42,467 nt of DNA from a virus, in IMG/VR virus record IMGVR_UViG_3300017987_000158, positions 1 through 42,467 of that record; one strand, 5' to 3'. The notes beneath the pieces were generated by a model, which was not told the DNA's origin, did no database searches, and was given only the letters and a program-made list of their open reading frames with translations. Positions 5,091-41,367 of this stretch are shown here, one piece after another. The first letter of the stretch is position 1. Every line of letters begins with the position of its first letter. The position numbers and the translations under genes were made by a program.

Positions 5091-6707
5091 TCATCCCCCC
5101 ATCGCACGACCCTGATCGTTTATCGGATTCCACGGAATATGCTTCACTCGCACCCAAACCTGAGCCCCTGTCGGAACAGGGGAGATCATTGCGTAGTTCT
5201 TGCGCGTCTGCGTATACGGAGCAGAGCCCCAACGCCCCTCCCTGCCGATCGACGCCCAAACGTCCGTATGGTCAAACTGCCATGACCGGCAGGCATTCCA
5301 GCTCGCATGAACGGCACTCACCCACGTTCCATCGTCTCCCTGGGTAACGAACGTCCGAAGGTGAAGACCGCTCGGAGTGGGCAGCTTTTCCATCGCGCCG
5401 AGCAACCACGCCTGATACCGCGCCTGGCGCTCTTCTTCGGTGAGGTCCTGCCCGAGCCAGTACGCGCGTTCGCCGATCACCTTGTTGACCGTGCCGGAGA
5501 TGATGGTCTGCCCTACTTGGTTCTCCACGTCGAATGTCCACTCAACGCTCATGACTCCAACGTCGATTGTGTAGTCGTTCCCCACGAAGCGGATGTAGTC
5601 GTGCGGCTCCGCATTCGGGTACACATAGGGGATCGTGATCCGCACATCCGGCGTTGGATCCATGAGGTCATGAAGGCAGGCGTAAGCATAGTCCTCGGCC
5701 TCTCCCTCAGTGTCGATGCAGGACCCTCGCTCCTCGACAAGGCGCATCTTGCAGTACTTACGCGCCGTCCCGCCTGACGGGATTCCATAGTTGTCGCGCG
5801 AGGTCGAGTCGCTAACGATGATGTTGTTGGTGCGGGCAATCGTCCGGTCGTAGTAGTAGAGTTGAATGAAGTTCCGAACGTCCTCAATGCCCACCTCAAC
5901 GTCGCGAACGGAGAACTGCCCGGTGAACGTGGCGTCTACTCCACGAGCAGCCTGGACCAACGCTGTCTCAGCGCTGAGACCTGTCCCGTAGCGCAGCGGG
6001 TCGTAGAGGACGGGATAGAATCCCTCCCCGCTTGTTGACAACGCAGATCCATCGTTGAATGCGGTTGCGTTTGCCTTGTACCGACAGGCCAGGACGTAGC
6101 CTGTCGGATGGACCGCGTTCTGTAGCGCCTCCCACGTCGTGACCTCGCCCGTCGCGTACGTGTCGATCGCGAAGTTCGGATTGTCCTCAACGACCACGTG
6201 GGCTAGGTTCCCCGAGAACTCTGAGTCGGCCAGAACCGACGCGGTGAGATCAGCGATGGTCCGGCCTTCGTAGACCCACTTGCTCATGCGCTGGTCGCGC
6301 TTGTACCGAGAGGAAATGCCATACGGCTCGAACGACACCGTGTCGTCCATCTCGACCTCAGTGTGTGAACTCGCTCCTAGCGCATAGCCCTGAAAGGCAA
6401 GCTCCCACGAGTCGCCAGCGTCCTTGCGGATGTAGGCACGCACGTCGTGAGACCGTTCGAGCAGAGGGTCGTATACGCTCGATCCATCCTTGTTGAGAGT
6501 CGAACTAGAGTCCAGCGGATCGAGCGAGTTCAGGTTCGGATGATTCGTCAGGTCGACACGGCAGTACCAATCCTTGCGATCGACATCCGAGCCAACGGTG
6601 ATTCGCCTGACGCGATCGGCGATGTTCCTAGTCGTTCCATCGGTATGATCGACCTCGAACTTGAGCAAGACCGCTTGCTTGTTCGTGGCCTTCGTGAAGG
6701 ACCTCAC
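5091..6707 (-). CDS. Baseplate / tail-tip protein
   Basis: A 538-residue protein beginning with GTG (RSFTKATNKQAV), coupled to the end of the tape measure gene by a GTGA overlap. The N-terminal 400 residues are mixed alpha/beta and resemble phage baseplate or hub-type proteins in layout (VRRITVGSDVDRKDWYCRV, FQGYALGASSHTEVEMDDTV). From about residue 425 a fibronectin-III-like domain follows (PSGLHLRTFVTQGDDGTWVS to VWVRVKHIPW). Immediately downstream of the tape measure gene siphophages normally encode distal tail and hub proteins, which fits. Exact subunit (Dit, Tal or hub) is not resolved. Confidence 0.65.
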   Translation of the reverse strand: MRSFTKATNKQAVLLKFEVDHTDGTTRNIADRVRRITVGSDVDRKDWYCRVDLTNHPNLNSLDPLDSSSTLNKDGSSVYDPLLERSHDVRAYIRKDAGDSWELAFQGYALGASSHTEVEMDDTVSFEPYGISSRYKRDQRMSKWVYEGRTIADLTASVLADSEFSGNLAHVVVEDNPNFAIDTYATGEVTTWEALQNAVHPTGYVLACRYKANATAFNDGSALSTSGEGFYPVLYDPLRYGTGLSAETALVQAARGVDATFTGQFSVRDVEVGIEDVRNFIQLYYYDRTIARTNNIIVSDSTSRDNYGIPSGGTARKYCKMRLVEERGSCIDTEGEAEDYAYACLHDLMDPTPDVRITIPYVYPNAEPHDYIRFVGNDYTIDVGVMSVEWTFDVENQVGQTIISGTVNKVIGERAYWLGQDLTEEERQARYQAWLLGAMEKLPTPSGLHLRTFVTQGDDGTWVSAVHASWNACRSWQFDHTDVWASIGREGRWGSAPYTQTRKNYAMISPVPTGAQVWVRVKHIPWNPINDQGRAMGG

Positions 6708-9700
6708 CCGATTCTCCTAGTCAGACCTGATGCGGAATGCGACTTCCCAACGTATTCGCGCCCATTGCGGTCGATCACCTTGACCATATAGTCGGCACAC
6801 TCGCGGTAGAACCCGGAACCGAGATAGACCTTGACATCCATGCCGCCAGCCCCTGCCCCAGCGAACGCGGGAGATCGCCCTATCGGCGCAATCGTTTCTC
6901 CTACATGCGCCTTGACTGCTACCGGAGCACCGATCGGCAATGCCGGCATTCCCGGCAAGGCACCGATCTCCCCTCCGTGTTGGAAGCCCGGCGACAAGAG
7001 GTCGAAGAGGAAGGCAGCCAGCCCGCCGCCGATAGCCCCAAGTGCTGCCGCGCCCCACCGGACAGGATTGATCCCTGCGGTCGCCCCGACGATCGCGCCG
7101 CCAACAACTGCTAGGGCGTAGACAAGCGCGCGCTTCAAAAGCCCGATCTGCGTCTCGATTCCAGACAGCTCGGACTTCACGCCATCGAAGTCCATCAGGC
7201 CGCCGAGTTCGTCGATCCAGTTGTCGATGGACGCCGAGAGTTCATTCCATGTTGGGAGGTTCTCTGTCAGCCAGGCCGCGCCCGCTTCGATTGCGTCCAC
7301 AACGCGGTCTAGCCAGTCTGTCAGGTCCTCGATCCACCCGGGGCCTTCCTCAATGAACCATGTGATCCCGCGTTGGATCCAACTGATGATCCCATCGAGC
7401 GTGATCCCGTTGCGTTCGAGGAAGTCCCCGACGATGCGGATGGACTGGTCGGCCGCATCCATGATGTCCGGAAGGCGCGAGGTGATCCACGACCAGAGCC
7501 GCGACGCTTTCTCGCGAACGCCCTCAAGGATGTCCGTCCAGCTTGAGATCCCGAAGCCCTCGAGCAAGCCGATGATCGCCTCTCCGAGTGCCTGGCCGAA
7601 CGGCTCGGCCCACGGCGGGATTTCGATCTCTGCGCCGCCCCCTGTGGAGGGCGGTGGTTCGCCGGGTCGGATGGCTTCATAGCGTAGCCGCTCCATCTTC
7701 CAGCCGATCGGGACGTTGAGGTTCTGTAGCGCCTCCCTCGTTTCATCGTTGACATCGCTCTGGATGCCGAGCCACTCACGGACCACCTTGATTGCAGCGG
7801 CAATCGGCCACAAGAACTCGCCGATCAAGTCGTAGAACGCCTGCCAGATTGGCCGGGCTTCCTCTTGGATTGCCTGATAGGCCGCGCTCTTTTGGATCAG
7901 GCTTGTGAACGAACTGATGAGGGAGCCGACTACTCCGAGGAGGGCATTGAATCCTTCGACCAGCAAGTCCACGCCCTCGAGCGTCGTCATCTTCACCGCA
8001 GATACCGCGAGGTTCGCCAGTGCGCCGAGGATGCCGCCGCCGCCGAGCAGGCCGGCGATTCGGTCAAACGATGAAACGTAGAAGTCAAGCACCTTCTGCA
8101 GCTCGCGCCGCCGTTCCTCAAGGCCGGAAACGAACATGTCAAGCACAGAGCCCGCGAGGCCAAGCGCGCTCGTGATCGCAGCAAGCGGATCGGTAAGTCC
8201 CTTCTTGAATACGTCGAACAAGCCACTAGCGAACGTGCTGACTTTCTCGGGCAGGACGCCAATTGCCTCTTGGATCAGCGCAGACCATCCTTTGTCAAGC
8301 CACTCCGCCGCCTTCTCCTTCCACGTCTTCTCTGGCGCGAAGAATGCCTTGGCCTCCCCTGCGGCCGCCCTCAGGGCCTCCGCCAAGTCAAACTCGCCAG
8401 CCTGTTCGGCGAGCTGGATTCGCTTCTCGAGGACGCCCAGCAAGTCGCCCTCCATGCCGGTCAACATGTTGAGCACGTCAACCTGATTGAGTCCCGCCAT
8501 CCCAACGCCGGCGAGAACTTCGGAGACCGTCTCCGCTTCAGCCGACAGGGCCGGGAAGTCAGCGGACATCTGACGAATTGCCTCTGCTGCTGTCATCCAG
8601 TCGCCGGTAGCGAGCGCCTGTGCGATGGGCGCTGTGAACTGCTCGCGGAATGCGTCAAGCATGGCCGTTGCCGCATCCTTCGCAGCCTGCTCCTGTTCCC
8701 GGCGCGCTTCCTCAGCTGCCCGCTCTTGTTCCCGGAGTGCCTGCTTGGCCTGGGATTCCGCTTCGCGTGCAGCCGTCTCCTTCTCGCGTGCGGCCTTCTC
8801 TTCAGCGGCCTGCATCTCGGCTGCGATCTCCTCGGGGTTCATTCCGCTCGTGTATTGCTGGATGCGCTGGTAGAGCTCTTCGATCGCTGTCCCGGCCTCC
8901 CCTGTGCCAGCGCCCAAGCGCCACATGCCATCTCGCAGCATGGACAGCACGCCCGATGCGCCGGAGATCTCCGAGATACGCTCCGCCATCTCGCCGATGG
9001 AAAGCTCGGCCTCGTATGCCACCTCCTCCGGGATGCCCTTTGGGATACCCGCCCGCGTTTCAAAGGGAGCGTGCGTCGTGGTTGTGATCGTCTGCGTGCC
9101 CGTAGTCAGCTCTTCGATGACTCGGTCGATCTCATCGAAGATCGTCCCGGCCTCGGAGATCGCCTTTGCCTGGAGGCTCTGTGCGAGCGTCTGGGCGGCA
9201 CTAGCGGCCTGACGCATCGAGGATGCAGCCTCGGCCGCGGCGTCGCTTGTGACCCCCAATGCTCGCTCGAGATAGGCGATCGTGCTTTCTGTCTCTCTAG
9301 TCGCTTGGCCGAAGTCCCTCTGTGCCTCCAGCAAGTCACGTTGCTCAACGAGTGCGCCCTCAAGGATGCTGTGGATCTCTCTGAGCAAGTCGGGCTTGTC
9401 TCCCAGTTCATCGGCGAAGCGGACGAACATGTCGACCAGCTCTCTTGTCGGCGTGCCCATTCCCTCAAGCTGGTCCCAGACGTCTCGGAGCGTGCCGACG
9501 GTGAAACCCGCGAGCTGCTCTCCGTCCTGAATCGCTGCAGTCGTGGACCGCTGTAGCTCGTCGAAGGCGTCGACGATCGCCTGCCAGTTCTCCGGGCGGA
9601 GTTGCTCGGGCAGCGCAGCGAGGTTGGCGACAAAGCTCTCTAGCTGCCTCAGAGACGCGCCGATCATCGCCATCTCTGTTGGCTTGCTGTACTGCTGGCT

Positions 9701-12700
9701 CAGTTGATACAACTCGCCAAGGGCGGCAACCGGGTCGTCGAAGTTGAGTCCGCCAAGCGCTTCCGCCAAAGCAGAGACATCCGCGGCGGAGGTCTGGGTT
9801 TCAGCAGCAACGCGGCCGAGGATGTCCTCCAGTATGGCGATCTCGTCTTCGAGCCCTTCCATGCCGAGGCGCTGGAGCTGCTCGAAGTCGCCGAGCAATG
9901 TACGAGCGGCACTTCCGCCGGAAAGCAGGGCCGCCGGGATCTCGCCATACGTTGCGAGGAAATCCTGAAGCGGGGCGAGAGCCTGCGTTGGGTCTTCCTC
10001 CATTGCCGCTCGAAGCTGCTCGAATGCGTCAGCCCACGCCAGGGCGCTCGCTGCATCCTCTGGACTCGGCACCGCGCCCGGTGCCGTGCCTGGTGCTCCG
10101 CCCGGTGCTTCACCCGGCGGTTGCGGGGCACCCCACGTAAAGACCTGCGGAGGCTGCGCACCGAAAGTCGGTCCAGTTCCTGCCGGTGCCGCCCCAGCCC
10201 CGAACGTGATGCCGCTGAATACGGCCGACGCGGCTCCCTCTGCTTCCTCGGTCATCTCTTCGAGGTCGCCAGTAATCAAGGCAATGGTCGCCCGTAGGTT
10301 GAGGAGGTCGGCCTCCCAGGTCGTTGTCATCTGGCTCATGGCTGTCTCGATGTCGCCAAGGACGGGGAACATGCCCTCCCAATCCGCGAAGAGTTCGCGC
10401 AGGCCAGCATTCCACGCGTCCACGGCTTCTCCCAGCGGGAGGTCCATGACCTCCTTCTGAAGGTCAAACAGGGCAATGGAGAACCGATAGAGTGCCCTAC
10501 GGCCTTGGATGTCTAGATCCTCGGTCTCCTCAATGGCCTCTCGGATGGCGATCCGGATCCTCTCGAAAACGCCGGCCAACTGCTGTTCGCTGCCTGTCGC
10601 GACAGCGAGATTCAGCAGGTAGTCGAGTTGGGCGCCGAACGCCTGCAGGCTTCGCTCTGCCTGTGCAACCGGCCTGTCGATTCCCCCACCAGCGAGCGCC
10701 ATCCCGAGGGCGGTAAGCGCAGAGACGAGAGCGAGGATTGGGTTCGTGAAGACAACGATCGCCGCCAAGGCTGCCCCAACGGCTTCGAGCCCCGTTACAA
10801 CCTGACGCCAGTTACCGATCACCCACTCGAAGGAGCCGGCCAAGGTGCTGAAAAGGCTTTCGAGCGCAGTTTCCAGCGCCCCGGACTCCTCAGCCCACTC
10901 AACAACTCTGTTGACGGTTGGGATTAGCGTGTCCTGTACAAGCCTAGTGAGGATCGGGATGACCTTCTCTCCGATCGTGACCTTGAGCAACTCCCACGAG
11001 CCTCGGAGGACTTCGAGCTGGCCGGAGAGCGTTTGCAGGCGAACTTCGGCCATCTCCCGCGCGGCACCACTCGCGTTCTCGAGCAGTGTCACCATCTCGC
11101 GCAGTCCATCGTTGTTCTGAATCAGCGCCGCGAGGGCCGGCCCGGCGCGCTTGCCGACCATTGCGATGACCTCAGCAGTTGTCGCTCCGTGCTCTGTGAG
11201 CACTCCGAGAATCTCCGAGAACTGCAGCAACTCGCCGCCCGGCCCCGTGATGTCCGCGAGGCTCACTCCCATCTCGTGTAGCTGGTCTACAAAGTCACCA
11301 GACGTAGCGATGAGTTCGGAGAAGGCAAAGCGAAGGGAGGTGCCGGCCATCGAGTTGCCGGATACAATGGCTTTCCCGTTCCGCCGCACAATGAGGAGGT
11401 GGTTTGGAACTTCGGCACAGAATACCTCTCCGTCGTATTCAACCCATCCCTCAAACGCCTCGTGGCGCGATCCATCTAGTCTCGCACCATGTGCGCCCGT
11501 GTATTCACTCGGCGTGAACCATGGGTGCGATCGCTTGCGGATATTGACCTTCCATTGGTCAAAACGAGCGCGGATCGGCCGCCCCTCTGATTCCAGATTC
11601 GTCTCATGGCCAGCACGCGCAACCAGGTATATTGATGTAGAGAACCCTAGCTTGAGCGCGGTCTCCATAACATCGTCGCGAAGCTGGATGGAAGATGTGT
11701 AGTATGCTCCGTTTTGGTCTCCGTCTCCTTCAATCAAGGCCGCGAGCAGGAGCCGCAACAACCTCGGAGACCACTCCTTCGCGTACTGTGGAATGCGCTT
11801 TTCATGAGCCTTCCCAAGCCGACGAACTTCATTCCAAAGCTGCTGATTGGTGATCGAAAAGCCATCCTTGCTTTCAACAACAGCCCACGGGAGCATGGCG
11901 AGAACACTGCGCATCCGGTCGCGCACATCCCCAGGGCGCTGAGTGATCCTCACGCGGTAGTTACCGCGATGCACATCCGAACTCCCCTCTGAGATGTACC
12001 ACCCCAGAAATGCCGCCCAAAGCTCAGCGTCGACCTCAAGCGCGGAGACTTCCTTCACCCAACTACCGCGATACTGCTGGAATCCTGGGAGTCGATACGT
12101 AGCAGCATCATTGCCGCGCCATTCCATTGCGCCCGTTTGATAGCGTACTTGCCGCCCAGCAACTTCTTCGGCCGTCAAAACCTCATAGGCCTCTTGCCCG
12201 CGTCCCATAACCCACATCCGGTGATCTGGCGTGACAGACAAGTCAATTGATTGGTTCCGCACTTGATACATGCACCCATTGTGCCGATAGCGCACAAGCC
12301 GCGACGGGCTCTGGTACTCAATCTCGTTGGACTCTGGATTCAATGTGGCAAACTCGTCGTCCATGCGCGCGTCTTGCCACGAGATCCATCCGCGGCGCGT
12401 TAGCACATCCGTCTGGTCGTCGTAACAACCTTGAATGCCAACATCGCCGAGCTTCGCTACAGCAGCCACGGTTTCCTCGAGTGAGAACCCGGCCGATCGC
12501 GCGATGGGTGCGATGTACTTCAGGGATTCGCCAAGCATGGTGACCGTCGTGTTAGAGCTGGCCGCCGCCTGGGCGAGAACGTCAGCAACTCGCGTGCTCT
12601 CAGAGGCTTCGAGGCCAAGCGCGCGGATGGTCTTCGACGCGATGTCCGCCGCCTCGCCGAGGGAGATGGACGCCGCGGCGGCCATGTCGGCAACGCCGGC

Positions 12701-13087
12701 CATTGAGCCGATGATCTCAGTCGTGGAGAATCCCGCGCGGCCCAGCGCCTCCATGCCGGCCGCGATGTCTGTCATGGTGAACTTGGTCGTCTTGCCGAGT
12801 TCCTTGGCCGTCTGCTCAAGCTGCTCGAATTGCTGGGCGGTCGGCTGCGTGACGGCCCGCACGTCGGCCATCGCCTGCTCGAAGCTAGCGGCTGCACTGA
12901 CGACAGAGTTGAGGCCCTTGACTACAGCAGCAATGCCGACGACGCCGATGGCGATCGTGGCGAACTTCGCCATGCGGCCATGCCAGCCGCGAAGCGTGTT
13001 TCCCGCCGCGAGTAGGCCAGCATTGAGCCCCTGCTGGCGGGCCATGAGGTCAAAGTAAGCTGTGCCAAGGGCTTCGCCTTGTGCCAT
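6704..13087 (-). CDS. Tape measure protein interrupted by an intein
   Basis: A protein of 2127 residues, the longest gene, directly after the tail chaperones. Residues 40-220 show the TP901-type tape measure core (ASFEQAMADVRAVT, FTMTDIAAGMEALGRAGFST). At residue 220/579 the conserved motif GIQG-SMAGTSLR is split by a 358-residue intein (221-578). Then come long Ala/Glu-rich helices, a charged coiled coil (EKAAREKETAAREAESQAK) and, near the C-terminus, hydrophobic segments (LVYALAVVGGAIVGATAGI) as in many tape measure proteins. After splicing the protein would have 1769 residues; at about 1.5 angstrom per residue the tail would be roughly 260 nm. The start ATG directly follows the recurrent motif. 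It ends in a GTGA overlap with the next gene. Confidence 0.93.
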   Translation of the reverse strand: MAQGEALGTAYFDLMARQQGLNAGLLAAGNTLRGWHGRMAKFATIAIGVVGIAAVVKGLNSVVSAAASFEQAMADVRAVTQPTAQQFEQLEQTAKELGKTTKFTMTDIAAGMEALGRAGFSTTEIIGSMAGVADMAAAASISLGEAADIASKTIRALGLEASESTRVADVLAQAAASSNTTVTMLGESLKYIAPIARSAGFSLEETVAAVAKLGDVGIQGCYDDQTDVLTRRGWISWQDARMDDEFATLNPESNEIEYQSPSRLVRYRHNGCMYQVRNQSIDLSVTPDHRMWVMGRGQEAYEVLTAEEVAGRQVRYQTGAMEWRGNDAATYRLPGFQQYRGSWVKEVSALEVDAELWAAFLGWYISEGSSDVHRGNYRVRITQRPGDVRDRMRSVLAMLPWAVVESKDGFSITNQQLWNEVRRLGKAHEKRIPQYAKEWSPRLLRLLLAALIEGDGDQNGAYYTSSIQLRDDVMETALKLGFSTSIYLVARAGHETNLESEGRPIRARFDQWKVNIRKRSHPWFTPSEYTGAHGARLDGSRHEAFEGWVEYDGEVFCAEVPNHLLIVRRNGKAIVSGNSMAGTSLRFAFSELIATSGDFVDQLHEMGVSLADITGPGGELLQFSEILGVLTEHGATTAEVIAMVGKRAGPALAALIQNNDGLREMVTLLENASGAAREMAEVRLQTLSGQLEVLRGSWELLKVTIGEKVIPILTRLVQDTLIPTVNRVVEWAEESGALETALESLFSTLAGSFEWVIGNWRQVVTGLEAVGAALAAIVVFTNPILALVSALTALGMALAGGGIDRPVAQAERSLQAFGAQLDYLLNLAVATGSEQQLAGVFERIRIAIREAIEETEDLDIQGRRALYRFSIALFDLQKEVMDLPLGEAVDAWNAGLRELFADWEGMFPVLGDIETAMSQMTTTWEADLLNLRATIALITGDLEEMTEEAEGAASAVFSGITFGAGAAPAGTGPTFGAQPPQVFTWGAPQPPGEAPGGAPGTAPGAVPSPEDAASALAWADAFEQLRAAMEEDPTQALAPLQDFLATYGEIPAALLSGGSAARTLLGDFEQLQRLGMEGLEDEIAILEDILGRVAAETQTSAADVSALAEALGGLNFDDPVAALGELYQLSQQYSKPTEMAMIGASLRQLESFVANLAALPEQLRPENWQAIVDAFDELQRSTTAAIQDGEQLAGFTVGTLRDVWDQLEGMGTPTRELVDMFVRFADELGDKPDLLREIHSILEGALVEQRDLLEAQRDFGQATRETESTIAYLERALGVTSDAAAEAASSMRQAASAAQTLAQSLQAKAISEAGTIFDEIDRVIEELTTGTQTITTTTHAPFETRAGIPKGIPEEVAYEAELSIGEMAERISEISGASGVLSMLRDGMWRLGAGTGEAGTAIEELYQRIQQYTSGMNPEEIAAEMQAAEEKAAREKETAAREAESQAKQALREQERAAEEARREQEQAAKDAATAMLDAFREQFTAPIAQALATGDWMTAAEAIRQMSADFPALSAEAETVSEVLAGVGMAGLNQVDVLNMLTGMEGDLLGVLEKRIQLAEQAGEFDLAEALRAAAGEAKAFFAPEKTWKEKAAEWLDKGWSALIQEAIGVLPEKVSTFASGLFDVFKKGLTDPLAAITSALGLAGSVLDMFVSGLEERRRELQKVLDFYVSSFDRIAGLLGGGGILGALANLAVSAVKMTTLEGVDLLVEGFNALLGVVGSLISSFTSLIQKSAAYQAIQEEARPIWQAFYDLIGEFLWPIAAAIKVVREWLGIQSDVNDETREALQNLNVPIGWKMERLRYEAIRPGEPPPSTGGGAEIEIPPWAEPFGQALGEAIIGLLEGFGISSWTDILEGVREKASRLWSWITSRLPDIMDAADQSIRIVGDFLERNGITLDGIISWIQRGITWFIEEGPGWIEDLTDWLDRVVDAIEAGAAWLTENLPTWNELSASIDNWIDELGGLMDFDGVKSELSGIETQIGLLKRALVYALAVVGGAIVGATAGINPVRWGAAALGAIGGGLAAFLFDLLSPGFQHGGEIGALPGMPALPIGAPVAVKAHVGETIAPIGRSPAFAGAGAGGMDVKVYLGSGFYRECADYMVKVIDRNGREYVGKSHSASGLTRRIG
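11354..12427 (-). mobile_element. Intein with LAGLIDADG homing endonuclease domain
   Basis: In-frame insertion of 358 codons (residues 221-578 of the tape measure protein). Block A starts at Cys221 (CYDDQTDVLTRRGW). Block B is DLSVTPDHRMWV (about 282-293). Two LAGLIDADG-type helices are visible, LGWYISEG (361-368) and LAALIEGDG (448-456), each with an acidic residue. Block F is GEVFCAEVPNHLLIVRRNG and block G ends VSGN578, followed by Ser579 as +1 nucleophile. The usual penultimate His is Gly. Sampled lines of this stretch look lower in GC than the flanks, consistent with later arrival. All splicing residues except that His are present, so splicing is likely but unproven. Confidence 0.92.
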
Positions 13088-15219: not shown

Positions 15220-15624
15220 CTACAGCCCGACCGTGCTCGGCGTACCGTAGAAGAGCCACGTGATGTTGACCGTCTGCACGTCATCCATCGAGGCACCCCA
15301 CTCGATCGCCTCGCACAGCGCACTGCCGGAAAGGAGAGTCGTTCCGCTCGCTGTATCCTTGATCGTGAGCAGTTTCGAGGTGTCGTTGGTCATGCACGAC
15401 TGTGCAGCAACGATCGCCACGTTGGTCGCATCCCACAGCACCGGCAGTGTCATCCGAATCGGATCGTACATGCCGCCTTCAAAGACCCTGTACGGCACGT
15501 TGCCGTCACCGATGCACGTGAACTCGATCTGATTTCGCGTGCGGCCGACACGGACTTCGCCGCGAGTCTGCACCTGCGTTCCCGAGAACTCTACGTACCC
15601 GAGATACCCCTTCCTATTCGCCAT
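15220..15624 (-). CDS. Tail tube-like structural protein
   Basis: A 134-residue protein starting MANRKGYLGYVEFSGTQVQ, close to the start of the 366-residue protein next to it. It is beta-rich (RVGRTRNQIEFTCIGDGNVP, ASMDDVQTVNITWLFYGTPS) with no membrane segment, as expected for a tail tube or tail-tube initiator subunit. Its SD (GGGGGTGAGGAAAG) lies inside the 3' end of the sulfotransferase-glycosyltransferase gene, and the two overlap by 11 bases, so translation is probably coupled. Which of the two proteins forms the tube shaft is not resolved. Confidence 0.6.
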   Translation of the reverse strand: MANRKGYLGYVEFSGTQVQTRGEVRVGRTRNQIEFTCIGDGNVPYRVFEGGMYDPIRMTLPVLWDATNVAIVAAQSCMTNDTSKLLTIKDTASGTTLLSGSALCEAIEWGASMDDVQTVNITWLFYGTPSTVGL

Positions 15625-17221
15625 CTTTCCTCACCCCCATGCCTGACCGCCATGTGTGTGTCGCCTGCTCCAAGTGACTGAGCAAGCTCGCCTTCATCTC
15701 TTCGCCTACGCTTGCGACGCCGTTCTGGAATTGCTTCCGCCCAACATCTGCAAGCAGCTTGTTCGCGTCTGCTATGTCAATCCTCACGTAGTGCCTACAC
15801 AACGCCGTGTAGTCCACGTAGGTTTCAAAGCCCAAGTCCTTCGCCTTGCGGAAGAACACGAAGTCCTCGCCCCAGCCCTTCGTGCCCCATTCGTCGGTTT
15901 CCTCCCATGCAAACACTCCATGCGGCATGGCTTCCATTACTTCTGCCTTGACCAAGCAACAGGCTAGGCTCGCAATGTCTACCCTCTGAACCCCCGGGCT
16001 GTTCGGCTCGCGGTAGTGCGGTGAGTACCCATTCGCCTTCTCATTCCAGTTGAGGGCAATGTGCATCGGCCCATGATCCTTCCATGCCTGAACGAGGAAG
16101 CCACAGATGTCCTTGTCGTGTCGCAGAAGTACATCGATGGCGTCCTCCGGCGGCTCCGTATCCGAATCGACCCACAGCATGTGCGTAAACGGACGGATGC
16201 CCTTGCCCCTCAGCCGCTCTTGTGTCTGCACGAACTCCCGGTGGCAGACGTTCCGTGCGCGGTGATGAGGCACGACGTTCATCGGTCCGTATACATGCAG
16301 GACGTACTTTCCTGACTCGCCCCACTCGAATAGCCGCTTGGCCGTCGGCCACGCGATGTCCACCTTGTTCGGCATGGCGATGAAGATGCGCGGCTTGTCG
16401 AGCACATCCCCCGCCGTCGCCCCAACGAGCTTCTCAGAGACGTGAACCTGCGCCACGTCTCCTGCCGGCGCACGCTTCGTCAATCGCCCGGACTCATCGC
16501 GGACAAGCTCGTAGCTGTTGCCTTCAGCGTCTTCGCGCACGGGATTCGCGCCAGCAACGTCGCTCGGGCCTACGTTGTAATGCGCGTCGTCGTAGTCGTA
16601 GGATTCAATCCCGAGGAATGCGAAGATCCGATCCTGCTCTTCGTGGCTACTCAGATCCTCCATTCGCACGACCAGTACGTTGTCATGCTCCTTGGCCATC
16701 TCCATGATCGCGCGGTTGTAGTCGTCGTAGTAGCGGCCCAACGCCTCGCGCTTGGTCTCCGCATCGTAGGACGGATGGATCATCGACCAGATGTTTCGCT
16801 GCCACTTCGTCCCGTCGTGGTCGATCCAGTGGTTGACCCCATCCTCGCCGCCCGTCTTCTTCACGAACGACTCGACGAACGCCTGCTTGTCTGCGCGGAT
16901 CAGCGCAATGACCTTGAAGTCGGGGAAGTCCTCCGCGATGTTGTCGAGGTAGGGCAGCCAGAAGCTCGCAACATCGCCAACAAGCCGATGCGTCTTCAGC
17001 CGCTCCTTGAACCGCTCGGCGTGAATGCGATACGGCTGCATCGGATCTTCAAGACCGTAGACCCGGCGCAGAATCTCTCGCTCCTCCTGAGTCGCTTCCT
17101 CCTTCAGCCAAGGCATGAGCGGCTCGGCTTCATGCGTCACCTTGCAGCCGTCCTGCTTGTTCAGCAGGCGAGCAAGAGACACCGTGCCACAACGCCCTGT
17201 TCCGATCCCGATTACCAACAT
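15614..17221 (-). CDS. Sulfotransferase-glycosyltransferase fusion
   Basis: A protein of 535 residues in two parts. The N-terminal half begins with the PAPS-binding loop type GTGRCGTVSL (residues 7-16) and has KVIALIRADKQAFVESF (about 103-119) in the place of the 3'-phosphate-binding Arg/Ser segment of sulfotransferases. MPWLKEE and VVRMEDL also fit that family. The C-terminal half (about 275-480) looks like a GT-A glycosyltransferase: MLWVDSDTEPPEDAID contains the DxD-type metal site (352-354), and GWGEDFVFFRKAKDLGFETY is the WGED-type acceptor/catalytic segment. The ATG follows the recurrent motif. It lies between tail terminator and tail tube genes, with an 11-base overlap. Modification of a virion protein or a host surface glycan is inference. 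Confidence 0.8.
   Translation of the reverse strand: MLVIGIGTGRCGTVSLARLLNKQDGCKVTHEAEPLMPWLKEEATQEEREILRRVYGLEDPMQPYRIHAERFKERLKTHRLVGDVASFWLPYLDNIAEDFPDFKVIALIRADKQAFVESFVKKTGGEDGVNHWIDHDGTKWQRNIWSMIHPSYDAETKREALGRYYDDYNRAIMEMAKEHDNVLVVRMEDLSSHEEQDRIFAFLGIESYDYDDAHYNVGPSDVAGANPVREDAEGNSYELVRDESGRLTKRAPAGDVAQVHVSEKLVGATAGDVLDKPRIFIAMPNKVDIAWPTAKRLFEWGESGKYVLHVYGPMNVVPHHRARNVCHREFVQTQERLRGKGIRPFTHMLWVDSDTEPPEDAIDVLLRHDKDICGFLVQAWKDHGPMHIALNWNEKANGYSPHYREPNSPGVQRVDIASLACCLVKAEVMEAMPHGVFAWEETDEWGTKGWGEDFVFFRKAKDLGFETYVDYTALCRHYVRIDIADANKLLADVGRKQFQNGVASVGEEMKASLLSHLEQATHTWRSGMGVRKDGE
15641..15650 (-). repeat. Start-associated motif copy 3
   Basis: GCGGTCAGGC inside the 3' end of the fusion gene, followed at once by ATGGGGGTGAGG, 16 bases before the ATG of the tube-like gene. 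That ATG is in the frame of the fusion gene. Confidence 0.75.
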
Positions 17222-22207: not shown

Positions 22208-24262
22208 CTACTGCGTGTTCACCACGCCTACGTCGTAGTTCCAACGCACTCCGTAGAGGTAGAAGTCATCCGTGTCCGCCGTAGAGGTCAGCTCGACGAT
22301 CAGGTAGGTATCGTCGCCGGTGAGGTCCGTATCCTGGCCAATGCCCGTGCTGTTGGTCACAAGGCTGGCCCACCCTCGCGCCGTGGTATCGGGAACAGCC
22401 AGCGTGTCGGTAAGGATCGCCGTGGTGTTGCCGTACTCGAACAGCCGCACGTCCATGTTGCATTCCTCGTTGGTTTGCTCGTGGACGTTGAACTGGAGAA
22501 CCAGCGAGCCGGTCTGCCCGTTGTCGAGCCACAGCGGAGGCAGCGGGATTGCGAATCGACAGTAGTCCGCCGCATCGCCAATCGACACGTAGCCCTCAGT
22601 AGATCCGACAGAAGCCGCGCCACCGTCAAGGCCAGCACAAGTCAGTGGCATACCGCCGCCGAGCACCTCAAGGCCATTCACCGACGGCGTCTGCGCATCG
22701 GTGTTGTAGCCAATGCCGAACACCATGAACCGTTCGTCAAGCGAGTTGGTCGTCAGCGAGATCGTCCCGGCCGTCGATGAGATGTTCCCACCGGTGACCG
22801 TCGCAGTACCGTCAGTCAGAGAACCACCAGTAACCGCGCCGTCGCTCGTGATCGCGCCGTTTGCTTGGATGACACCTGCCGTGGAAAGCGAGACGCCGGT
22901 CGAGCCGTAGCCACCGCCGATCGCTGCACTGTCGGCCGTCAGGGATCCGTCTGTCGTGATCGCCCCGTTAGCCTGAATCACGCCAGCCGCCGACACCGTG
23001 ACTCCCGTCGCGCCGTAGCCGCCGCCAATCGTTGCGTAGGTGATGCTGCCCGTCTGGCAGGTCATCGTTGTGAACGTGCCAGCCCCGGCAGATCCTGCGC
23101 CGATTGTCGCGCCGTCGACCGTCCCGCCGTTGATGTCCGCTGTAGTGACCGAACCAAGATTCGCAATCGTTGCGCCGGCAAAGGTGGCCGTAGTCGTCAC
23201 CGTCAGGTCCTGGATGGACGCATCGTCTGCTACCGTGAGGTCCCCGCCAGTGCCTAGAAGCGTGATCGACCCAGTCTGCGATGTATTGCCTGTTCGATAG
23301 ACTGCCCCAACATGCGTCAGAGCCCCCGCGATGTTCACCGCGTCATCGATGTCAACCACGTCAAGATTGGTTATCCCGTCCACGTCAAGATCGCCCGTGA
23401 CATCGGCATCGTCCCCGACGGTCAGGTCGCCGCCTGCACCGATCAAGGTGACCGACCCTGTCTGAGTGGTATCGCCTGTAATCCCCAGGCTTGTCAGCCC
23501 CGTCAAGTCGCCGCTGGTCAACGTAGCCGTGCCGTCTGTAAGGGACGTGACAGTCGTTGCGTCCAGTGCGGCCGCCCCAACGAAATCGAACCCACCACCA
23601 GCCGTCCAGGTAAGCGCCTTGCTCGAACCCGTCTGCGTGATCGTCACATTGCCGGTCGTATCAGCAACTGAGATCTTCATCCACGAGTCAGCGTCGTAGC
23701 CGACGTAGTAGGACGGTGTGTAGAATGCGAGCGACGTGTCATTCGTCCACGTAGTCGCCTCGCCTGATCCAGCCTGAGTGATCGCCAGAACGCCGGTCGT
23801 GTCTGTCACCGCGAACTTCAGGTACGCCCCAGCGTCGTAGCCAATCGTGTAGCTCGGCGTGTAGAAGCTCAGTGATGTTCCGTTCGTCCATGAGGTCGCC
23901 GGCGCACTCCCAGCGTGCGTAATCGCCAGCACGCCAGTTGTGTCCGATACTGCGAACCTGATGTATGCCCCGGAATCATAGCCGAACGTCTGGCTCGATC
24001 CGTAGAATGCTGATGCCCCAGTGAACGACACCACGCCGACTAGGCTGATGTTCGTCTCTGTGATCGTCAGCGTGCTCGCCGTTGTGTTGTCAAGTTGCGC
24101 CCCGCCTACTAGGTCCATCCGCCCCGTGCTCGTAATGCCCCAGATGCAGGTAGACCCGTCTGGTGCCACGCGCCAGATGTGATAGTCCGAAGTACTGATG
24201 GCAAACGAAGACGCCGCCGCCAGCAAGACTACTCCCAGCGCGAGGACAAGTGCTCTCTTCAT
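22208..24262 (-). CDS. Sec-exported repeat protein in the head operon
   Basis: A protein of 684 residues. A canonical signal peptide (MKRALVLALGVVLLAAASSF, then A; cleavage before ISTSDY) opens it. Three tandem repeats of about 45 residues follow, starting GYDSGAY, GYDAGAY and GYDADSW, each with DTTG and an aromatic SFYTPSY-type end (the third is degenerate). Then comes a long Gly/Thr/Asp-rich repetitive region (GGDLTVGDDADVTGDLDVDG) typical of beta-helical fibres, and a globular C-terminal domain of about 180 residues. The ATG follows GGGGGTGAAAGAG; an in-frame ATG lies at 24277. It lies between portal and protease, an unexpected place for an exported protein. Role unknown: head fibre or surface adhesin are possibilities. 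Confidence 0.75.
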   Translation of the reverse strand: MKRALVLALGVVLLAAASSFAISTSDYHIWRVAPDGSTCIWGITSTGRMDLVGGAQLDNTTASTLTITETNISLVGVVSFTGASAFYGSSQTFGYDSGAYIRFAVSDTTGVLAITHAGSAPATSWTNGTSLSFYTPSYTIGYDAGAYLKFAVTDTTGVLAITQAGSGEATTWTNDTSLAFYTPSYYVGYDADSWMKISVADTTGNVTITQTGSSKALTWTAGGGFDFVGAAALDATTVTSLTDGTATLTSGDLTGLTSLGITGDTTQTGSVTLIGAGGDLTVGDDADVTGDLDVDGITNLDVVDIDDAVNIAGALTHVGAVYRTGNTSQTGSITLLGTGGDLTVADDASIQDLTVTTTATFAGATIANLGSVTTADINGGTVDGATIGAGSAGAGTFTTMTCQTGSITYATIGGGYGATGVTVSAAGVIQANGAITTDGSLTADSAAIGGGYGSTGVSLSTAGVIQANGAITSDGAVTGGSLTDGTATVTGGNISSTAGTISLTTNSLDERFMVFGIGYNTDAQTPSVNGLEVLGGGMPLTCAGLDGGAASVGSTEGYVSIGDAADYCRFAIPLPPLWLDNGQTGSLVLQFNVHEQTNEECNMDVRLFEYGNTTAILTDTLAVPDTTARGWASLVTNSTGIGQDTDLTGDDTYLIVELTSTADTDDFYLYGVRWNYDVGVVNTQ

Positions 24263-24282
24263 CTCTTTCACCCCCATGTTTC

Positions 24283-40290: not shown

Positions 40291-40634
40291 AGTAGGTCAA
40301 GGGCTTGCTTTGCAAGGGCGATTGACCCCTCTGCCGTCTGCCGCCAGACAAGTTCGCCTAGCGGCTGCAGCGCAATGCTGCGGATTAGTCCCCGCACCTC
40401 TGCATCGCGGGCCGCAAGCCTCATGTCTTCGGTGCAGATCCAGCAGACGATCCGCTCCATGTAGCACCACTCGACGGAACCCTCCTCAAGCTGCTCCGGC
40501 ATGTGGCCGATGTCGTAGAGTAACGACAGCACCTTCGGCGTCGCGTTGATGTAGGCATACAGGGCCTTCTTACTAACAGGTCCTTCCCGCTCGCCAGACC
40601 GGATTTCGGCGATTTCCCTCGCCAGCTCAGACAT
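40269..40634 (-). CDS. MSELA-start protein
   Basis: 121 residues from the ATG at 40634 (MSELAREIAEIRSGEREGPV). The remainder is helical with KALYAYINATPKVLSLLYDI, ERIVCWICTEDMRLAARDAE and a C-terminal KQALDLLEGGEDV. The same N-terminal block begins the 120-residue gene. ATGTCTGA junction to the hexad-repeat gene upstream. A longer in-frame ATG is rejected. Function unknown. Confidence 0.6.
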   Translation of the reverse strand: MSELAREIAEIRSGEREGPVSKKALYAYINATPKVLSLLYDIGHMPEQLEEGSVEWCYMERIVCWICTEDMRLAARDAEVRGLIRSIALQPLGELVWRQTAEGSIALAKQALDLLEGGEDV

Positions 40635-41367
40635 CGCCATCGGCCCTCTCAACAAGTTCGCCCGTCAGCACTTGCCCGTTCGCAAGACGGATTGTCGCGG
40701 TGGATTTCGGCTCGCCTGTGAATCCAGTCACAACGAGCTTCCCGTGAACGATTTCGCCAGAATCATGAGACCCACAACGGATTTCGTCGTCTCCTTCATC
40801 CAGCTCCAGCTTCCACGGAGCCAAACCCGCGAACAATCGGCCCCCGAATGCAAGCCCCTCCTTGCAGGTGATCGACAATCCCGCATGAATGCCGAAACCG
40901 GCCTTGATGTACCGGCCGGCCTTGATGAACTCGCCGGCCTCGATGTACCAGCCGGCCTTGATGTACCAGCCGGCCTTGATGGACCAGCCGGCCTTGATGA
41001 ACCAGCCGGCCTTGATGAACCAGCCGGCCTCGATGTACCCGCCGGCCTTGATGTACCCGCCGGCCTTGATGGACCAGCCGGCCTTGATGAACCAGCCGGC
41101 CTTGATGAACCAGCCGGCCTCGATGTACCCGCCGGCCTTGATGTACCCGCCGGCCTTGATGAGCCAGCCGGCCTCGATGGACCCGTCGGCCTTGATGCCC
41201 GAGCCGGTCTTGGCGACAATCATCCCAGTAGCTGCAATGCTGCCTTCGACGTAGACGGACCCAAGGTTCGCCTCGAATCGAAGATGCCCGACAATCTGGG
41301 AGAGGTCGGCCCTCCCGACGTACTGCCCGTTTTCTACCTGTGACTTGTCAACTACATATGTCTCCAC
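40627..41367 (-). CDS. Hexapeptide-repeat (beta-helix) protein
   Basis: 246 residues from GTG after AAAGGAGG. Residues about 55-168 are 19 hexads of the form G-x-x-I-K/E-A (for example GWFIKA, GGYIEA, GWSIKA), the pattern of a left-handed beta-helix. Trp, Phe or Tyr recur at positions 2-3. The flanking parts are globular (LRFEANLGSVYVEGSIAATG; a C-terminal beta domain with GSHDSGEIVHGKLVVTGFTG). The region shows an exact 90-bp tandem duplication. A bactofilin-like or surface role is only an analogy. Confidence 0.7.
   Translation of the reverse strand: METYVVDKSQVENGQYVGRADLSQIVGHLRFEANLGSVYVEGSIAATGMIVAKTGSGIKADGSIEAGWLIKAGGYIKAGGYIEAGWFIKAGWFIKAGWSIKAGGYIKAGGYIEAGWFIKAGWFIKAGWSIKAGWYIKAGWYIEAGEFIKAGRYIKAGFGIHAGLSITCKEGLAFGGRLFAGLAPWKLELDEGDDEIRCGSHDSGEIVHGKLVVTGFTGEPKSTATIRLANGQVLTGELVERADGDV
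40864..41205 (-). repeat. 18-bp tandem repeat array (hexad codons)
   Basis: About 19 units of 18 bases encoding G-x-x-I-x-A. Not a CRISPR: no spacers, and the frame is kept throughout. Confidence 0.9.
40981..41160 (-). repeat. Exact 90-bp tandem duplication
   Basis: Bases 40981-41070 and 41071-41160 are identical. Each copy encodes five hexads. Identity at all positions, silent ones included, suggests recent expansion. Confidence 0.9.

What the first reader, a model, noticed from the sequence alone, without database searches (positions are those of the whole stretch)
11354..12427. Intein inside the tape measure protein at a conserved motif
The intein splits GIQG|SMAGTSLR, the most conserved motif of TP901-type tape measure proteins. 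Because tail length is set by the tape measure length, splicing must occur before tail assembly or the tail would be about 54 nm longer or not assemble. Inteins usually lie in terminases or polymerases; a tape measure site is rare.
Basis: partly seen in the sequence, partly recalled or inferred. Interest (0 to 1): 0.75.

Follow-up and report, generated by a model that had tools for sequence, protein, structure and literature searches.

The report
Mobile intein in phage tape-measure gene
This uncultivated phage carries a probably self-splicing, mobile protein insert (an intein) in the most conserved motif of the protein that sets its tail length, and related inserts sit at exactly the same point in six other tape-measure genes, so this gene is a recurring landing site for inteins.

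Summary
Confirmed. The 2127-residue tape-measure protein (TMP; 6704-13087, minus strand) contains a complete 358-residue intein at exactly the stated coordinates. Splicing residues (Cys1, TxxH, block-F Cys, Asn358, Ser+1) and both LAGLIDADG motifs are intact. The predicted fold (pLDDT 90.6) matches solved endonuclease-bearing inteins. Joining the flanks makes the Pfam TMP match continuous (111 to 142 bits). The insertion point is the centre of the most conserved 12-residue stretch of TMPs.

Related inteins (45-65% identical) occupy the identical point, GI[KQ]G|SMAG, in six other distinct TMPs of viral contigs; intein-free alleles exist in many relatives, some in the same metagenomes. Intein and extein trees conflict (AU tests), which indicates horizontal homing between TMPs. 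None of the 631-859 isolate-phage records matched by three TMP-plus-intein queries covers 80% of the query at one place, and the papers I could search report none; TMP interruption by introns is known (ICP1).

The '54 nm longer tail' inference is weak: an intein is a globule whose ends meet, so an unspliced copy would more likely block tail assembly. Splicing and homing are inferred, not shown. Best filed as a new, recurrent host site for a known kind of element.

The parts
12428..13087 (-). TMP N-extein, 220 aa, ends ...KLGDVGIQG
   Evidence: PF10145 profile 2-131 ends at residue 220; translation
11354..12427 (-). intein with LAGLIDADG homing endonuclease, 358 aa
   Evidence: full-length homology to phage inteins, fold, alignment of 13 inteins
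12386..12427 (-). block A, CYDDQTDVLTRRGW, with Cys1 nucleophile
   Evidence: Cys1 invariant in 13 related inteins
12221..12232 (-). block B, TPDH (TxxH)
   Evidence: T66, P67, H69 invariant
11984..12019 (-). first LAGLIDADG motif, WAAFLGWYISEG, acid E147
   Evidence: F140, G142, G148 invariant, E147 nearly so
11720..11752 (-). second LAGLIDADG motif, LLAALIEGDG region, acid D235
   Evidence: G234-D235-G236 invariant; weak PF14528 match
11381..11428 (-). block F, EVFCAEVPNHLLIVRR, with invariant Cys337
   Evidence: C337, V340, R348 invariant
11354..11371 (-). block G, AIVSGN, terminal Asn358; next-to-last residue Gly instead of the usual His
   Evidence: Asn358 invariant, Gly357 nearly so
6704..11353 (-). 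TMP C-extein, 1549 aa plus stop, begins SMAGTSLR (Ser+1 nucleophile)
   Evidence: joined flanks match PF10145 profile 2-182 without a break; TIGR01760 second stretch

Best explanation
A class-1 intein with a LAGLIDADG homing endonuclease sits between the Gly and Ser of the conserved GI[QK]G|SMAG motif of a TP901-type tape-measure protein. The 2127-residue precursor most likely splices itself to a 1769-residue TMP: Cys1 forms a thioester, Ser+1 attacks it, Asn358 cyclises, and the two exteins join. The endonuclease most likely cuts intein-free TMP genes at the same site when two phages share a cell, so that repair copies the intein in (homing). It belongs to a lineage of inteins fixed on this TMP site that moves between very different TMPs. 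Shown here: the anatomy, the exact site, intact catalytic residues, empty alleles, and the conflicting histories of intein and extein. Inferred: splicing itself, DNA cleavage, and that splicing precedes tail assembly.
For: Full-length intein homology; conserved catalytic residues in 13 relatives; confident fold matching PI-TkoII, PhoVMA and PI-SceI; joined flanks restore the TMP domain, 111 to 142 bits; the same point is occupied in six further distinct TMPs and empty, GI[KQ]G|SMAG, in many others, including 66-79% relatives; intein 65% but N-extein 38% between window and L066, and intein 49% but extein 65% between L066 and L072; AU tests reject congruence, p 0.0016, 0.006, 0.0014; TMP inteins are one side of a branch, 90/80; low pN (0.16-0.35) with saturated pS in the intein.
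Against: No splicing or cutting was observed. The residue before the terminal Asn is Gly, not His, though about 5% of functional inteins lack this His (PMC4031507). No flanking co-conversion tract is visible. No close intein-free allele of the window's own TMP was found.
Confidence: 0.9

Rival explanations
1. The endonuclease is dead or dying: the intein still splices but no longer homes in this phage and is inherited vertically.
For: No recent co-conversion tract around the site in relatives; no activity was measured.
Against: Both LAGLIDADG motifs and their acids are intact, the endonuclease part is predicted with high confidence, and histories conflict between intein and extein.
Confidence: 0.2
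2. The intein is a conditional switch: splicing is delayed or triggered (redox, temperature, a phage factor) so that TMP becomes active only when tails should be built.
For: Placed in the most conserved motif of an assembly protein; invariant Cys at block F and Gly before the last residue could make splicing slow or sensitive (inference).
Against: Most related TMPs have no intein and evidently assemble without such a switch; a homing parasite explains the same facts.
Confidence: 0.05
3. The insert does not splice but cuts, or stays in the virion TMP as a folded domain.
For: Gly in place of the usual penultimate His can slow Asn cyclisation (PMC4031507).
Against: It would break the most conserved TMP motif; all splicing nucleophiles including Ser+1 are kept in seven diverged TMPs.
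Confidence: 0.04
4. It is a self-splicing RNA intron with an endonuclease frame, as in the ICP1 tape-measure gene.
For: Introns with homing endonucleases do interrupt the TMP gene of phage ICP1 (PMC10448857).
Against: No Rfam match on either strand at E up to 1, open frame throughout, complete intein blocks and intein fold.
Confidence: 0.005

Closest known systems
LAGLIDADG inteins of ThyX (Corynebacterium phage P1201; Solirubrobacteraceae MAG JANWIP010000028)
   Same: Same length class, same N- and C-terminal blocks, Gly before the last Asn, LAGLIDADG endonuclease; aligns over the full length, 27-35% identity
   Different: Host protein and insertion site; the TMP inteins form their own branch
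Tape-measure introns with HNH endonucleases of vibriophage ICP1 (PMC10448857)
   Same: Mobile endonuclease elements inside a TMP gene, removed before the protein works
   Different: Removed from RNA, HNH endonuclease; here removal is at the protein level and the endonuclease is LAGLIDADG
Mycobacteriophage inteins (terminase, nucleotidyltransferase, portal and others; PMC5050341)
   Same: Phage inteins at conserved sites with homing endonucleases
   Different: 13 host protein groups there, none a tape-measure protein
PI-SceI, PI-TkoII and PhoVMA inteins (solved structures)
   Same: Hint splicing domain plus LAGLIDADG endonuclease, fold match E 2e-15 to 2e-12
   Different: 10-16% identity; hosts are VMA ATPases or DNA polymerase

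Membership tests
Class-1 intein | Cys, Ser or Thr at intein position 1 | tested here: met
   Cys1, invariant in 13 relatives
Class-1 intein | Block B TxxH | tested here: met
   T66-P-D-H69
Class-1 intein | C-terminal Asn and Cys/Ser/Thr at +1 | tested here: met
   Asn358, Ser+1 in all seven TMPs
Class-1 intein | Penultimate His (usual, not obligatory) | tested here: not met
   Gly357; about 5% of functional inteins have another residue, so membership is not excluded
Class-1 intein | Hint fold | tested here: met
   AlphaFold pLDDT 90.6, Foldseek matches to solved inteins
Class-1 intein | Splices in frame to a conserved host protein; intein-free alleles exist | tested here: met
   Joined flanks match PF10145 without a break; empty alleles
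Class-1 intein | Protein splicing activity | not testable with these tools
   needs an expression test
LAGLIDADG homing endonuclease | Two LAGLIDADG motifs with acidic residues | tested here: met
   E147 and D235 kept; PF14528 itself is below its cut-off in the window protein (19.6 of 22.5 bits) but above it in L068, L071 and L064
LAGLIDADG homing endonuclease | Moves between alleles (conflict of element and host histories) | tested here: met
   identity table and AU tests
LAGLIDADG homing endonuclease | Site-specific DNA cleavage | not testable with these tools
   needs a cleavage assay
TP901-type tape-measure protein (host) | TIGR01760 / PF10145 conserved domain | tested here: met
   213.5 and 111.2 bits, above cut-offs

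The most novel reading that the evidence does not exclude
Splicing of the TMP intein is regulated and times or gates tail assembly, so that a homing parasite has become a switch on a ruler protein.
Probability: 0.05. Interest if true: 0.75.

Novelty: new member of a known kind. Interest (0 to 1): 0.45.

Why it matters
Lists of intein hosts are dominated by enzymes of DNA and nucleotide metabolism and terminases. Here a long, non-enzymatic ruler protein is a repeated target, and the target is its most conserved short motif, which suggests that a conserved DNA target, not an enzyme active site, is what homing needs. It also warns that TMP length, used to predict tail length, must be counted without the intein, and offers a natural way to ask when TMP must be whole during tail assembly.

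Tried and rejected
Intron: no Rfam match at E up to 1. Other intein types at the same TMP site: a degenerate pattern for GI[KQ]GC[LF]xxDT over viral contigs gave six hits, none in a TMP; one is an intein in a helicase-like protein directly before a P-loop, which shows that the pattern can find inteins. Close intein-free allele of the window's own TMP: none found with N- or C-extein queries. Co-conversion tract: identity of L067 and L068 to empty alleles is flat, about 0.6-0.75, for several hundred bases on both sides, so no recent tract is visible. Bacterial genomes: one scan found only a ThyX intein. Lak phage intein: host is not recognisably a TMP. dN/dS ratios: synonymous sites saturated, so only pN and pS are given. 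Sequence search of the PDB: one marginal match.

Full report
Observation. The window is a 42,467-base virus record of IMG/VR. Portal, capsid, terminase and tail genes lie on the minus strand. The reading frame 6704-13087 encodes 2127 residues and is a TP901-type tape-measure protein (TMP): TIGR01760 4.2e-63 in two stretches, PF10145 7.9e-32. PF10145 stops at profile position 131, at the last residue before the insert. The insert, 11354-12427, reads CYDDQTDVLT...VSGN and is followed by SMAGTSLR. It is homologous from its first to its last residue to known phage inteins, e.g. the ThyX intein of Corynebacterium phage P1201 (9e-25; annotated there as a hypothetical intein). With the two flanks joined, PF10145 matches without a break over profile 2-182, with 142 instead of 111 bits. 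A second assembly carries the same TMP and intein at 99.994% identity over 16.7 kb.

Anatomy. In an alignment of 13 related inteins, Cys1, TPxH of block B, the glycines and acids of both LAGLIDADG motifs, a Cys in block F and the terminal Asn are invariant or nearly so. The residue before the last is Gly, not His, in this intein and nearly all its relatives; about 5% of functional inteins have an alternative there (PMC4031507). The AlphaFold model has mean pLDDT 90.6; its best solved matches are PI-TkoII, the TliVMA and PhoVMA inteins and PI-SceI, all inteins with endonucleases (the PDB row of the best match says only 'intein homing endonuclease II', the name PI-TkoII is from my own knowledge).

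Site. Across 17 intein-free TMPs the 12-residue stretch centred on the insertion point is the most conserved of 258 windows. In the modelled N-terminal TMP domain (mean pLDDT 72, about 85-90 around the site) the point lies in a short Gly-rich turn at the start of a helix.

Relatives. Scans of viral contigs with the intein and its flanks found inteins at exactly the same point, GI[KQ]G|C...GN|SMAG, in L066, L067, L068 (and its near-copy L069, where SMAG reads SMSG), L070, L071, L072 and a fragment, L075. In six of these records, and in the 52-kb sister of the window, the PF10145 match likewise breaks at position 131. Empty alleles are present in many TMPs, among them relatives of L068 with 66-79% identity in the N-extein; occupied and empty alleles occur in the same metagenomes, 3300025736 and 3300033145.

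History. Inteins and exteins disagree: the window and L066 share 65% in the intein but 38% in the N-extein; L066 and L072 share 49% in the intein but 65% in the N-extein. AU tests reject the extein grouping on intein data and the intein groupings on extein data (p 0.0016, 0.006, 0.0014); these groups were chosen after seeing the identities, so the p-values are somewhat optimistic. The TMP inteins form one side of a branch against inteins of ThyX, terminases, RNA polymerase and others (90/80; moderate support, long branches outside). The simplest account is one lineage of inteins specialised on this TMP site that moves by homing. Amino-acid conservation with saturated synonymous change (pN 0.16-0.35, pS 0.76-0.90) shows continuing selection on the intein.

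Function. The best-supported mechanism is ordinary class-1 protein splicing to a 1769-residue TMP plus homing of the gene; neither reaction was observed. The rule of about 0.15 nm of tail per TMP residue (established knowledge from lambda-like phages) holds for the extended helical ruler. An intein is a compact domain whose two ends meet in one active site, so an unspliced copy should add little length but put a globule into a conserved domain that has to be packed in the tail tube. Failure of assembly is more likely than a tail 54 nm longer.

Known or new. TMP genes are known homing targets through introns (ICP1, PMC10448857), and inteins are common in phage enzymes and terminases (PMC5050341). 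I found no report of an intein in a tape-measure protein among the searchable papers, and none of the 754, 859 and 631 phage records matched by three TMP-plus-intein queries had one place covering 80% of the query. UniProt and nr could not be searched and only the top rows of those lists could be read, so priority is not settled. I file it as a new member of a known kind, with an unusual and recurrent host site.

Noticed in passing
window 40815-41264 (gene 40627-41367, minus strand): About 17 tandem copies of an 18-bp unit encode a hexapeptide repeat (AGGYIK/AGWFIK...), a repeat protein without Pfam match, possibly a beta-helix.
   Followed up: partly
window 15614-17221 (-): A 535-aa protein with an N-terminal sulfotransferase domain and a C-terminal part like a phage glycosyltransferase lies between tail and capsid genes.
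   Followed up: no
window 22208-24277 (-): A 689-aa protein next to the portal gene, with an internal 141-bp repeat and no Pfam or PHROG match.
   Followed up: no
L063 5010-6053: A related intein inside a protein whose flanks look like a trypsin-like protease, directly after a SNNHV-like active-site stretch, another unusual intein host.
   Followed up: no
L057 4001-5032, L058, L078: Related inteins in proteins that look like virus-encoded RNA polymerase beta subunits; identified by eye only.
   Followed up: no
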